Below, piece after piece: positions 1,696-5,594 of a stretch of DNA of 64,000 bases (the first letter of the stretch is position 1; each line of letters starts with the position of its first letter). A program made the translations under genes and the position numbers. The stretch spans positions 8,850-72,849 of the forward strand of contig NZ_BDHH01000011.1 in assembly GCF_001748365.1 (NCBI RefSeq), in the 5' to 3' direction. This stretch comes from Fusibacter sp. 3D3. Its GTDB lineage: Bacteria > Bacillota > Clostridia > Peptostreptococcales > Acidaminobacteraceae. The notes under the pieces were generated by a model. That model saw only the letters and a program-made list of their open reading frames with translations, did not search any database and was not told the origin of the DNA.

Positions 1696-1925
1696 TGTAC
1701 ACATAGGGTTGGACACAAAAAATCAAATTTAAGTTATAATACAGTTATGAGTAGAAAAAGAAGAACATGGACCCCTCAGGAGAAAGTAGAAATAGTGCTA
1801 GAAATCCTTCGAGAAGAAAACACATTATCTGAATTATCAAGAAAATATGAAATTGCACAGCCAATCCTCAGTCGCTGGAAAATAGAGTTCTTATCAAATA
1901 TGTCAGTGGTCTTCGATAAGAAAGC
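1696..1925 (+). mobile_element. Left-end fragment of an IS3-family insertion sequence
   Basis: A TGTACA-type terminus at 1696, followed by GGGTTGGACAC, resembles the left ends of the IS150 group of the IS3 family. It is followed by a -10-like TATAAT at 1735-1740 and the N-terminal part of an orfA transposase gene at 1747. The element is cut off near 1920, where an IS110-type element starts. I found no orfB (DDE integrase) and no right end on the far side of the IS110 element, so only about 230 bp remain. The precise cut point is inferred from where the protein similarity stops. Confidence 0.6.
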
Positions 1926-1941
1926 TTCCTGTATAATTTAA
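1747..1941 (+). pseudogene. Truncated IS3-family OrfA (helix-turn-helix protein)
   Basis: The frame encodes the N-terminal HTH domain of an IS3 OrfA: a basic start, then the helix-turn-helix around LSELSRKYEIAQPILSRWK, then the NMSVVFDKK segment typical of OrfA proteins. After that the frame reads only a few unrelated residues before a stop, whereas intact OrfA proteins are about 90-110 aa with a leucine zipper. The break coincides with the left edge of the neighbouring IS110 element, so the gene was most likely disrupted by it. It would bind IS ends as part of an OrfAB transposase if intact; the remnant should have no transposition activity. Confidence 0.75.
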
Positions 1942-2042
1942 ATAGGTCAAGCGATTGACAAAGAAAAATACCTCAAGTAAATTAAGATTATTACTGACCA
2001 GACCGTTAGTAAAAAATCAAAAAAATACGAGAGGTATCTAAG

Positions 2043-3470
2043 ATGAATTTTAAAGGCAAAAAGAAAAAAAATCAAGTTATAGCAGCAAATATTTTTGAAC
2101 AACAAGAAATTTTAAAAAAAATGGAAGCCATAAAAAATAATCTTAAAGCATCTACATGGCATGAATTGGAAACAAAAGGCAAGTTTGATAAAAACGAAAA
2201 ATTGACTTTTATCAGTGATGATATGCTTGTTTTAGGATGCGATATCGGCAGCGAAACACACTATATAAGAGCGATTGATACCCGAGGCAGAGAACTCAGT
2301 AAATCCGCATTTCCATTTAGCAACACACAAGAGGGTTTTGAAAGTGCTAAAGACTGGGCAGTTGAGATAGCTGCGGCGAATGACAAAAAACAGATTGTAT
2401 TAGGTCTGGAGCCAACAGGACACTATTGGTTCTGCCTAGCGACATGGATGATATCCAATGGAATCAGCGTTGTTCAGGTTAATCCATATGCGGTGAAGCA
2501 AACAAAAGAACTAGAGGATAATAGCCAGCTTAAGGATGACATAAAGGATCCGAAACTTATTGCAAATCTTGTAAAGGATGGCAACTTTGGAATGCCATAT
2601 CTTCCAGAAAAACTGTATGCGGACCTTCGTCGTCTGTCAATGTTCAGGGAACAGTTGAACGAGGATAGAATCCGATTTCTCAATAGGCTTCATCGCGAAA
2701 TGAAGATATATTTTCCAGAGTATAAGGACGCACTGGGAAAGTTTGACGGCACATTCAGCCTAGAACTTCTAAAAACAGCACCATTTCCAGAGGACCTTGT
2801 TTCACTTGGCACTGATGGCATAAGACAGATTTGGCATGATGCTAAGCTTAGAGGACGCGGCTATAGCAGAGCTGAGGAGATTATGAAATATGCCCTCAAA
2901 AGTGTTGGCATGAAGGATGGCACTGATGCCAGTAGAATGGCTGTAAAGTGGTTTGTCGAAAGAATTATAGAACTAGACGAACAACTTTCAGAGGTAGAGG
3001 AACAACTGAATCAAAAATGCATGGAAATTCCACACGCTGAGAACATCCTTGAAATATCAGGGATAGGAAGTAATACACTTTCTGGAATATTGGCAGAGAT
3101 GGGCGATATATCGCGGTTTGATGATGTAAAGGAAATACAAAAGCTGAGTGGCTTAGGACTTGTGGCGTGTAGCTCAGGTAAGCACAAAGGGAGAACCAAG
3201 ATTAGTCATAGAGGACGCAAACGGCTGAGATATTGGTTATTCCAGGCTGCTAAGTGTGTAGTGGTCCATTCGGATGAGTTCAAAGAACTTCATGCGTACT
3301 ATACGACGAGGCTTGAGAATCCACTTAAAAAGATGCAGTCGCTGATAGCCATTGCTTGCAAGGTACTTCGTGTGATATACACAATGCTTACAAACGGCAC
3401 GGTGTATGACCCTAAGAAGTTGAAAGCGGATATAAAGAGACCGACTAAACTGAAAGCAGTTGCTGCATAA
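2043..3470 (+). CDS. IS110-family transposase (DEDD recombinase)
   Basis: The 475-residue protein has the two IS110 domains. The N-terminal RuvC-like DEDD domain starts near residue 62 with the first acidic residue in VLGCDIGSETHY, followed by LGLEPTGHYW near residue 120 and the KDDIKDPKLIANLV segment near 165. The C-terminal transposase_20 domain carries EISGIGSNTLSGILAEMG near 340 and the GRTKISHRGRKRLRYWLFQA stretch near 382, with the conserved serine context near the GLVACSSG region. The N-terminus is some 50 residues longer than in many IS110 transposases. The start ATG follows an AGAGGTATCTAAG ribosome site. The family uses an RNA-guided recombination mechanism (bridge or seek RNA). The gene appears intact, so the copy may be active. 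Confidence 0.92.
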   Translation: MNFKGKKKKNQVIAANIFEQQEILKKMEAIKNNLKASTWHELETKGKFDKNEKLTFISDDMLVLGCDIGSETHYIRAIDTRGRELSKSAFPFSNTQEGFESAKDWAVEIAAANDKKQIVLGLEPTGHYWFCLATWMISNGISVVQVNPYAVKQTKELEDNSQLKDDIKDPKLIANLVKDGNFGMPYLPEKLYADLRRLSMFREQLNEDRIRFLNRLHREMKIYFPEYKDALGKFDGTFSLELLKTAPFPEDLVSLGTDGIRQIWHDAKLRGRGYSRAEEIMKYALKSVGMKDGTDASRMAVKWFVERIIELDEQLSEVEEQLNQKCMEIPHAENILEISGIGSNTLSGILAEMGDISRFDDVKEIQKLSGLGLVACSSGKHKGRTKISHRGRKRLRYWLFQAAKCVVVHSDEFKELHAYYTTRLENPLKKMQSLIAIACKVLRVIYTMLTNGTVYDPKKLKADIKRPTKLKAVAA

Positions 3471-3497
3471 CAGAAACAAGAAAATAGTATTGTCAAT

Positions 3498-3546
3498 CCA
3501 GACCCTTGCTGGGATTCAGAAAATCTGGATTCGAGCAGGGTTCTGG
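3498..3546 (+). ncRNA. Long stem-loop in the IS110 3' non-coding region, candidate bridge/seek RNA
   Basis: Starting 28 nt after the transposase stop, a 23-nt arm (3498-3520) pairs imperfectly with 3524-3546 around a 3-nt loop; about 18 of 23 positions pair. It is followed by several hundred bases without a credible gene. In the IS1111 subgroup of IS110 elements the guide RNA is encoded downstream of the transposase, so this structured tail is the natural candidate. There is no T-run after the stem, which argues against a plain terminator. The RNA limits and the target- and donor-binding loops cannot be assigned from one copy. Confidence 0.4.
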
Positions 3547-4013
3547 AAAGCAACCCGATTGAGATGAAGTCGCTATAAGTGCTTTATCAGCAATATGACT
3601 AACTGAGAGAATCAAGGTATAGCGTCCACTGAATATCAGATCCTTGAAGATCAAATTGGTCAGTAAAATCAAAATCTAAAAAACAAGAGCTGTAGCTGGC
3701 AGTAGTTATTTCCTTAGGGCAAGACCCTGTTAGAAAGCTTAGCCGGCACTCAGTGTATGAACAGGTGGGACGAAGGAAGTTGGGACATGATCCCATTAGA
3801 CACGGAAGGTTCACCATCATAGCTAAACAGAGGAATCACGGCCTTTATAGAGTATTACAAGCGGATGCTTATTAAGCTGTACCCATTTTAGCTATTCAGT
3901 ACATGATATCATGACTGTTCTACACTTTTAGCTCTGGTTAGCGAGGTAACTATTTAAACCAAAGCCTTAAAAATCAATGATTTTAGGCTTGACAATATAG
4001 GAAGGATGATGTT
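3547..4013 (+). other. Non-coding tail of the IS110 element and serA leader
   Basis: No reading frame in this stretch has both a ribosome site and recognisable similarity; a minus-strand frame at 3599-3820 looks like chance. Most of it is probably IS110 3' non-coding DNA. Near its end a hairpin at 3962-3990 (AAGCCT and AGGCTT arms extended by A/T pairs) lies just upstream of the serA ribosome site AGGAAGGATG. There is no T-run after that hairpin, and no T-box or other known leader motif was recognised. Confidence 0.5.
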
Positions 4014-5594
4014 ATGAAGATCTTAGTTACAGAAAACATTGCCGATGAAGGCATCGCGTTTTTAAAAGCACAAAATATGGATGTCACTGTCAATTACACC
4101 CTTACCCGAGAAGCCTTATTGTCCTCCATCTCAGAATATGATGCTCTGATCGTCAGAAGCGTCACAAAAGTAAATGAGGAACTCTACGCTCATGCTAAGA
4201 ATCTCAAAGTTGTTGGTCGTGCAGGTAATGGCGTTGACAATATCGAACTCGCTGGTGCAACCGAACGCGGCATCATCGTGGTAAATACGCCCGATGCCAA
4301 TACCGTATCTGCCGCTGAACATACGATCGCTTTGATGCTTTCTATGGCGCGGAATATTCCAAGAGCCAATCAGCATATTAAATCAAAGCAATGGGATCGC
4401 ACACTCTTTAGGGGGGTAGAACTCAAAGGGAAAACACTTGGCATCATAGGCCTTGGCAGAATTGGAACAATGGTTGCCACAAGAATGCAAGCTTTCGGTA
4501 TGGCTGTGGTTGCTTACGACCCCTATATTCGTTCAGATAAATTTGAAAAATTAGGTGTTGAAAAAATGGAGCAGTTGTCGGACTTGTTGGTTAAATCCGA
4601 TTTTATTTCTGTTCATACCCCAAAGACAAAGGAGACCATTGGCATCATCAATGCTGAATCCTTTAAACTCGTTAAAAGAGGGGTGCGTGTGGTCAACTGT
4701 GCACGTGGTGGCATTATAGATGAAGCGGCTTTATATGATGCGCTCACTCAAGGGATAGTTGCAGGGGCTGCAATAGACGTGCTTAAAGACGAACCCCATC
4801 CCATTTCGCCTTTACTCGATCTTGAATCTACTGTGATCACACCTCACCTTGGAGCAGATACTTTTGAAGCTCAAAAAAACGTTGGCGAATCTGTTGCCAT
4901 TGAAGTCTTTGAGGCATTAAAAGGAAAACTCGTGGCCAATGCTGTGAATTTACCAACACTTTCACAACAAGAATTAGAGCATATGAAACCCTATTTAACC
5001 TTGCTCGAAAGAATGGGAAAAATATACCATCAGATTCATCACGATGCTGTTGAACGCATTGTTTTTACCTATAAAGGAGATTTTACACACCGCAATACGG
5101 ATCCCTTTGTACTGGCATTTATCAAGGGGCTTTACGAAACTGTATTAGATACCCCTGTGACGTATGTCAACGCCAAGTTGATCGCAGAAAATAGGGGCGT
5201 CACCGTTTCAGAAAGCAGAGTTAGTACGACAGACGACTTCAATAGTTCTATCAAGATTGAAATTCACTCCAAAAATCAAACCTTTGAAATGGAAGGTGCT
5301 CTTTTTGGCAAAAATGACCCGCGAATTGTTTCCATCAACAGTTATCCTATGGATATCACGCCTAAAGGCAACATGCTTATGATCGAAAACAATGATAGTC
5401 CTGGCATGATCGGTACAATCGGTTTGCTTTTAGGTCAAAATAATATCAACATCTCAACGATGAATGTCAGCCTTTCCAAAACACATAAGCCTGCGCTTAT
5501 GCTACTGACAATAGATCTCCCCGTGCAAGACGATGTTCTGCGCCAGATACAAAATCAAAAGGGCATTTTAAAGGCTTGGGCACTTAAAATATAA
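4014..5594 (+). CDS. serA: D-3-phosphoglycerate dehydrogenase
   Basis: This cytoplasmic enzyme oxidises 3-phosphoglycerate with NAD to 3-phosphohydroxypyruvate, the first step of serine synthesis. At 526 residues it has the long bacterial architecture: a substrate/NAD domain pair with RAGNGVDNIELA near 76, the nucleotide-binding GLGRIGTMVATRM near 148, the VNCARGGIIDEAAL arginine motif near 228 and the catalytic ITPHLGADTFEAQ histidine near 280. An intervening ASB domain follows, then a C-terminal ACT domain from about residue 452 (MLMIENNDSPGMIGTIG) that in this family binds serine for feedback control. The next gene starts about 20 bp downstream, so the two probably form an operon. No serB or serC lies beside it. 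Confidence 0.96.
   Translation: MKILVTENIADEGIAFLKAQNMDVTVNYTLTREALLSSISEYDALIVRSVTKVNEELYAHAKNLKVVGRAGNGVDNIELAGATERGIIVVNTPDANTVSAAEHTIALMLSMARNIPRANQHIKSKQWDRTLFRGVELKGKTLGIIGLGRIGTMVATRMQAFGMAVVAYDPYIRSDKFEKLGVEKMEQLSDLLVKSDFISVHTPKTKETIGIINAESFKLVKRGVRVVNCARGGIIDEAALYDALTQGIVAGAAIDVLKDEPHPISPLLDLESTVITPHLGADTFEAQKNVGESVAIEVFEALKGKLVANAVNLPTLSQQELEHMKPYLTLLERMGKIYHQIHHDAVERIVFTYKGDFTHRNTDPFVLAFIKGLYETVLDTPVTYVNAKLIAENRGVTVSESRVSTTDDFNSSIKIEIHSKNQTFEMEGALFGKNDPRIVSINSYPMDITPKGNMLMIENNDSPGMIGTIGLLLGQNNINISTMNVSLSKTHKPALMLLTIDLPVQDDVLRQIQNQKGILKAWALKI

What the first reader, a model, noticed from the sequence alone, without database searches (positions are those of the whole stretch)
3471..3960. 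Structured 3' non-coding tail of an IS110 element: candidate bridge/seek RNA
The transposase is intact and followed by a 23-nt-arm hairpin and about 400 nt of non-coding DNA, while the 5' side has only about 120 nt. IS1111-type elements encode the RNA guide downstream. This copy has a known insertion target (an IS3 orfA), so guide-target pairing can be tested. The transposase also has an unusually long N-terminus.
Basis: partly seen in the sequence, partly recalled or inferred. Interest (0 to 1): 0.6.

Follow-up and report, generated by a model that had tools for sequence, protein, structure and literature searches.

The report
Guide RNA that targets ribosome-binding sites
The non-coding tail of this jumping gene encodes a two-loop guide RNA that matches both the element's own ends and its insertion sites, and across a large clostridial family those sites are often the ribosome-binding sequence just in front of a gene's start codon, a position where the element's own end restores the sequence it splits.

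Summary
The element is 2,080 bp (1925-4004), and its 3' non-coding tail runs 3471-4004, not to 3960. The tail encodes a bridge/seek-type guide RNA. About 75 relatives share it, with helices supported by covariation (29 pairs changed on both sides versus 15.6 shuffled; 97.9% of cells paired). Two internal loops carry guides in the IS1111-type order. The target loop (RTG 3706-3713, LTG 3730-3737) tracks each element's own flanks (0 of 20,000 permutations reach the observed LTG match). The donor loop (RDG 3775-3781, LDG 3801-3808) co-changes with the element's ends (72 of 73, plus one compensatory CCTCC/GGAGG case). More distant elements found only by covariance model also match. The 23-nt hairpin is conserved but is not the guide. 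The IS3 orfA is not this copy's full target: its left flank is IS3 orfA, its right flank is the serA Shine-Dalgarno; the serA site is empty in a sister species. The target is Shine-Dalgarno-like: 17/28 clade-B, 8/36 clade-A and 8/10 copies in one distant genome sit 4-13 nt before an ORF start. The right end restores the split Shine-Dalgarno. IS900 is an older precedent for translation-start targeting. RNA expression and activity are not shown.

The parts
1923..1924 (+). Core dinucleotide AG at the left junction (shared target/donor base pairs)
   Evidence: Left flanks of the copies end in AG and empty sites carry one AG; the same AG is used in the 229-bp mini-element
1925..1937 (+). Left end of the element, right donor (RD) CTTCC plus the -10 box TATAAT of the junction promoter
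   Evidence: Identical or near-identical in about 75 elements
1925..2042 (+). 5' non-coding region, 118 nt; contains a conserved hairpin (about 1968-2038) that pairs the tnp ribosome-binding site GAGAGG with ACCTC
2043..3470 (+). IS110-family DEDD recombinase, 475 aa, with an N-terminal extension (helix at residues 10-33)
   Evidence: Pfam; AlphaFold pLDDT 81, best PDB match IS621-bridge RNA complex 8wt9, TM-score 0.73 by target length
3471..4004 (+). 3' non-coding tail, 534 nt, carrying the guide RNA
   Evidence: Conserved length, mostly 510-560 nt, in relatives; covarying structure
3497..3547 (+).
   Evidence: 21 pairs, 11 with changes on both sides, 97% of cells paired
3622..3868 (+). Guide domain, closed by helix 3622-3627 with 3863-3868
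   Evidence: 99.4% of cells paired, but mostly invariant
3687..3822 (+). Two-loop guide core modelled as covariance model R1
   Evidence: E 6e-38 in the window; found in further genomes
3706..3713 (+). Right target guide (RTG) UUAUUUCC, complementary to the top strand of core plus right target
   Evidence: RTG versus right flank: 32 of 20,000 permutations as good overall; weak within clade A
3730..3737 (+). [quoted passage not shown]
   Evidence: Perfect 8/8 to the reconstructed serA site CCATTAGAAAG; 0 of 20,000 permutations across elements
3775..3781 (+). Right donor guide (RDG) GGAAGUU, complementary to the left end (core plus CTTCC)
   Evidence: Compensatory CCTCC/GGAGG in L044; ATTCCC/GGGAAU and ATTCCT/AGGAAU in distant elements
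3801..3808 (+). Left donor guide (LDG) CACGGAAG, same sense as the right end ATAGGAAG
   Evidence: Co-changes GGAAG/GGGAG with the right end in 72 of 73 elements
3989..4004 (+). Right end, left donor TTGACAATATAGGAAG with the -35 box TTGACA; joined to the left end gives TTGACA-17 bp-TATAAT
4000..4016 (+). Restored Shine-Dalgarno GGAAGG (4000-4005) followed by the serA start codon ATG (4014-4016)
   Evidence: Sister genome G002 has the empty site CCAGTAGAAAGGATGATGTTATG
1747..1924 (+). Left half of an IS3-family orfA flanking this copy (one half of another insertion site)
   Evidence: Pfam HTH_Tnp_1; uninterrupted copy in L010; right half flanks copy L003

Best explanation
The tail encodes the bridge/seek RNA of an IS110-family element. 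Excision joins the two ends into a circle; the junction forms a TTGACA-17-TATAAT promoter that transcribes tnp and the tail. The recombinase binds the RNA. [quoted passage not shown] In the donor loop, RDG and LDG pair in the same order with the joined element ends. Strand exchange occurs at an AG core. Because LTG spells a Shine-Dalgarno-like sequence (GAAAG or AGGAG) and RTG carries CC, the element often inserts inside ribosome-binding sites, in the direction of the gene. Its right end (GGAAG or GGGAG) plus the first target base then restores the ribosome-binding site at the original distance from the start codon. Shown by sequence: ends, core, structure, guide-flank and guide-end agreement, position before start codons. 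Inferred: transcription, RNA binding, base pairing, catalysis, and that the downstream gene stays translated.
For: Ends and empty sites. Covarying helices (slid controls drop to 34-51% paired). LTG versus own left flank: 202 matches against 125 expected, 0 of 20,000 permutations; also within clade A (0) and within clade B (4 of 20,000). Donor co-changes in 72 of 73, and L044 CCTCC/GGAGG. Elements found by covariance model or too distant to have been used in forming the idea agree: left end ATTCCC or ATTCCT with RDG GGGAAU or AGGAAU; left flanks ACGGAG, TTAGGAG and AAAGGAG with LTG AACGGAG, UUUAGGAG and UAAAGGAG. Start-codon association: clade B 17/28 against 7.2% of control windows (p 4e-13), clade A 8/36 against 5.2% (p 4e-4); genome G154 8/10 against 10.6% (p 6e-7). 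Fold match to the IS621-bridge RNA complex.
Against: No RNA or activity data. RTG agreement is not significant within clade A alone (1,402 of 20,000). Permutations do not correct for relatedness. Clade A, to which the window belongs, is only modestly start-codon-associated, and two of the three reconstructed sites in this genome lie inside genes (MFS transporter, IS3 orfA). A few probably decaying elements break the pattern (L027, L049, L060). Some distant guides have no left flank available to test.
Confidence: 0.88

Rival explanations
1. The tail is a structured RNA with another role (stabiliser, terminator or regulator of tnp mRNA), and the target choice is made by the protein.
For: Much of the conserved structure (stem-loop 3497-3547, helix 3563-3588, the 3' part) lies outside the guide core.
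Against: The variable loop positions follow each element's own insertion flank and ends, including compensatory changes and elements not used to form the idea.
Confidence: 0.06
2. The guide RNA lies in the 5' non-coding region, as in the IS110/IS621 group.
For: The 5' region is also structured and conserved (z -4.2).
Against: It is only 118 nt, and its conserved structure is one hairpin that covers the tnp ribosome-binding site; no two-loop guide structure is seen.
Confidence: 0.02
3. The link to Shine-Dalgarno sites is a passive result of preferring any purine-rich AG-containing DNA, or of selection against insertions inside genes, rather than of an adaptation of the guide to ribosome-binding sites.
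For: Clade A accepts GAAAG sites within genes, and purine-rich hexamers upstream of genes are mostly ribosome-binding sites in clostridia (general knowledge).
Against: The LTG spells the hexamer and changes with it between and within clades (GAAAG, AGGAG, TGGAG, ACGGAG, CCAAAG). This rival mainly concerns why the site is used, not the guide mechanism.
Confidence: 0.25

Closest known systems
IS1111-group insertion sequences with seekRNA (ISEc11, ISPa11, ISKpn4; PMC11187229)
   Same: DEDD transposase; long non-coding region downstream of tnp; top-strand match 5' of bottom-strand match; junction promoter; no target duplication
   Different: Inverted repeat CTTCCTRTAT starts at the junction rather than subterminally; transposase not shown to group with IS1111; tail of about 530 nt with conserved structure beyond a 70-170 nt seekRNA; target is a Shine-Dalgarno-like site
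IS621 and IS110-group bridge RNA (PMC11208160, PMC11208158)
   Same: Two internal loops for target and donor, each pairing with both DNA strands and including a core dinucleotide; recombinase fold (TM-score 0.73 to 8wt9)
   Different: Guide RNA downstream instead of upstream; order of the guide strands reversed; core AG instead of CT; 17-18% sequence identity in the structural alignment
IS900 of Mycobacterium avium subsp. paratuberculosis (Doran et al. 1997, known here from its title in the reference list of PMC8141618)
   Same: IS110-family element reported to target translation initiation signals
   Different: No guide RNA is described for it in what was read here; its relation to this clade was not tested

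Membership tests
IS110 family (DEDD recombinase) | DEDD RuvC-like domain plus Transposase_20 domain | tested here: met
   Pfam hits above curated cut-offs; conserved D67, E123, D166/D169 and S378 region; fold match to IS621
IS110 family (DEDD recombinase) | Bridge RNA with target- and donor-binding internal loops | tested here: met
   Covarying two-loop RNA with guide-flank and guide-end agreement; expression not tested
IS110 family (DEDD recombinase) | Circular intermediate with junction promoter | not testable with these tools
   Ends joined in silico give TTGACA-17-TATAAT with conserved spacing; the circle itself was not seen
IS1111 group | Long non-coding region and guide RNA downstream of tnp | tested here: met
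   Mostly 510-560 nt downstream against about 112-131 nt upstream in relatives
IS1111 group | Top-strand match located 5' of bottom-strand match | tested here: met
   RTG 3706-3713 before LTG 3730-3737; RDG before LDG
IS1111 group | Subterminal inverted repeats of 7-17 bp | tested here: inconclusive
   Inverted repeat CTTCCTGTAT / CTTCCTATAT (9 of 10) begins at the junction core, not subterminally
IS1111 group | Transposase groups with IS1111 transposases | tested here: inconclusive
   Tree places the clade apart from IS4321, IS621, ISEc20 and ISEsa2, on very long branches
IS110 group (IS621-like) | Bridge RNA in the left (upstream) end | tested here: not met
   Guide core lies downstream in every element where it was placed

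The most novel reading that the evidence does not exclude
A large clostridial group of IS110-family elements carries an oversized downstream bridge RNA whose guides encode the Shine-Dalgarno sequence. It turns the ribosome-binding sites of many genes into interchangeable landing sites where the element's own end restores the site. A conserved leader hairpin keeps tnp silent when the host gene's promoter reads through it.
Probability: 0.6. Interest if true: 0.75.

Novelty: new variant of a known kind. Interest (0 to 1): 0.62.

Why it matters
It gives a direct, testable RNA explanation for an IS110-family element that targets translation initiation sites, a behaviour reported for IS900 long before bridge RNAs were known. 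It also shows a low-damage insertion strategy: split a motif found before many genes, restore it with the element's own end, and sit in a transcribed leader. About 75 natural elements with co-varying guides are a ready set for learning the pairing rules of the downstream-type bridge RNA. A recombinase that naturally accepts short, ribosome-binding-site-like targets could interest programmable DNA insertion work.

Tried and rejected
Rfam search of the element: no family matches. The 23-nt hairpin as guide: rejected, because no flank-matching variable loop lies in it, while the loops at 3706-3737 and 3775-3808 do match. Reading the IS3 orfA as this copy's target: rejected after flank matching. 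L003's left flank as the upstream half of the serA site: rejected, it is an MFS gene that continues in frame into L002's right flank. Literature: Siddiquee et al. and Durrant et al. contain no mention of Shine-Dalgarno or start-codon targeting; searches for IS110 with Shine-Dalgarno or ribosome-binding sites found no such guide; only open-licence papers were searchable. The IS1111-versus-IS110 tree was not decisive.

Full report
What is there. The element is a 2,080-bp insertion sequence at 1925-4004. Its ends were read from four full copies and several partial copies in the same genome. All copies with readable ends share CTTCCTGTATAAT on the left and TTGACAATATAGGAAG on the right. Joining the ends gives TTGACA-17 bp-TATAAT, a promoter of the kind known for IS110/IS1111 circles (PMC11187229). 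It encodes a 475-aa DEDD recombinase whose predicted fold best matches the IS621-bridge RNA complexes. The 5' side is 118 nt and the 3' tail 534 nt (3471-4004).

Relatives. One scan of public genomes returned 80 loci at about 47-87% transposase identity. Nearly all with readable ends share those ends and mostly keep 510-560 nt downstream and about 112-131 nt upstream. Two main clades appear. Clade A has the 475-aa type with an N-terminal extension and right end GGAAG. Clade B has about 428 aa, no extension, and right end GGGAG. L056-L058 are a third, smaller group.

Structure. The tail folds far better than shuffled sequence (z -4.7). On 29 clade-A tails, 74 pairs in 11 helices are 97.9% paired, with 29 pairs changed on both sides against 15.6 in shuffles. 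Sliding the partners by 1-3 columns drops pairing to 34-51%. The structure was derived from the same alignment, so the slid controls lean in its favour; the count of both-side changes is the stronger evidence. The guide domain is closed by a helix 3622-3627 with 3863-3868 and holds two stem-flanked internal loops.

Target loop. RTG is UUAUUUCC (3706-3713) and LTG is UUAGAAAG (3730-3737). Across 51 elements the LTG matches the element's own left flank in 202 positions against 125 expected; none of 20,000 re-pairings reaches this. The effect holds within clade A (0) and within clade B (4 of 20,000). The RTG matches the right flank overall (32 of 20,000) and within clade B (215), but not significantly within clade A (1,402). 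These permutations do not remove relatedness. Individual cases of natural re-direction are clear: CCAAAG, TGGAG, AATGGAG and AAAAAG guides sit beside the same flanks.

Donor loop. The variable base of the right end (GGAAG or GGGAG) agrees with LDG in 72 of 73 elements, including L061, a clade-A element with GGGAG on both sides. L044 has left end CCTCC and RDG GGAGG where the others have CTTCC and GGAAG.

Elements not used to form the idea. A covariance model of the two-loop core found copies in further genomes of the same order, with transposases at about 42-49% identity or not compared. Their left ends are ATTCCC where RDG reads GGGAAU, and ATTCCT where it reads AGGAAU. Their left flanks ACGGAG (three copies), TTAGGAG and AAAGGAG match LTGs AACGGAG, UUUAGGAG and UAAAGGAG.

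True target of the window copy. Flanks of the three full copies L001 (window), L002 and L003 are permuted. L002-left joins window-right as the serA ribosome-binding site, CCATTAGAAAG|GATGATGTTATG. L003-left joins L002-right as an MFS gene that reads in frame. Window-left joins L003-right as the IS3 orfA, intact in L010. The sister genome G002 carries the empty serA site CCAGTAGAAAGGATGATGTTATG. The LTG matches the serA site 8 of 8. Recombination between copies and mis-assembly cannot be told apart here; contigs C2, C16 and C37 end inside copies.

Ribosome-binding sites as targets. In clade B 17 of 28 insertions lie 4-13 nt before an ATG-started ORF, against 7.2% of control windows (p 4e-13). 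In clade A it is 8 of 36 against 5.2% (p 4e-4). In genome G154, 8 of 10 copies ending in GAGGGAG precede an ORF start by 6-11 nt, against 10.6% of control windows (p 6e-7), including ORFs that look like selA, rfbD and hlyD (gene names are my reading of the peptides). The right end plus the first target base restores GGAAGG or GGGAGG at the same distance.

Known and new. Downstream guide RNA and the top-before-bottom order are IS1111-type features (PMC11187229). Two loops and core pairing are bridge RNA features (PMC11208160). Neither paper mentions Shine-Dalgarno or start-codon targeting. IS900 was reported to target translation initiation signals (title of Doran et al. 1997, cited in PMC8141618), so the behaviour has a precedent; what is new here is a guide RNA that explains it in a different clade. 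Membership in the IS1111 group stays open: the inverted repeat is flush with the junction and the tree is not decisive.

Limits. All evidence is from sequence and prediction. RNA expression, binding, strand exchange and retained translation are untested.

Noticed in passing
window 1967-2038: The 5' leader folds into a hairpin that pairs the tnp ribosome-binding site GAGAGG with ACCTC; the seven outer pairs are invariant and inner pairs covary across 23 elements of all clades. It may keep tnp untranslated on read-through transcripts.
   Followed up: partly
L009 (G000 C30), about 3554-3782; related copy in L012 (C14): A 229-bp mini-insertion runs from an AG inside the RDG (window 3774-3775) to the normal right end, inside an ISAs1-like transposase gene that reads in frame when it is left out. 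It looks like use of an internal pseudo-donor at the AG core.
   Followed up: partly
L001, L002, L003 flanks: The flanks of three copies are cyclically permuted, by recombination between copies or by assembly error.
   Followed up: partly
L013 (G000 C1) 4053-4105: A 53-bp relic holding only the 3' end of the element.
   Followed up: no
window 2043-2230: The N-terminal extension (predicted helix, residues 10-33) is present in clade A and the L056 group but absent in clade B; role unknown.
   Followed up: partly
L021 4459-4477 and L056 4471-4489: The right end is followed directly by another CTTCCTG-like left end, suggesting tandem or abutted elements.
   Followed up: no
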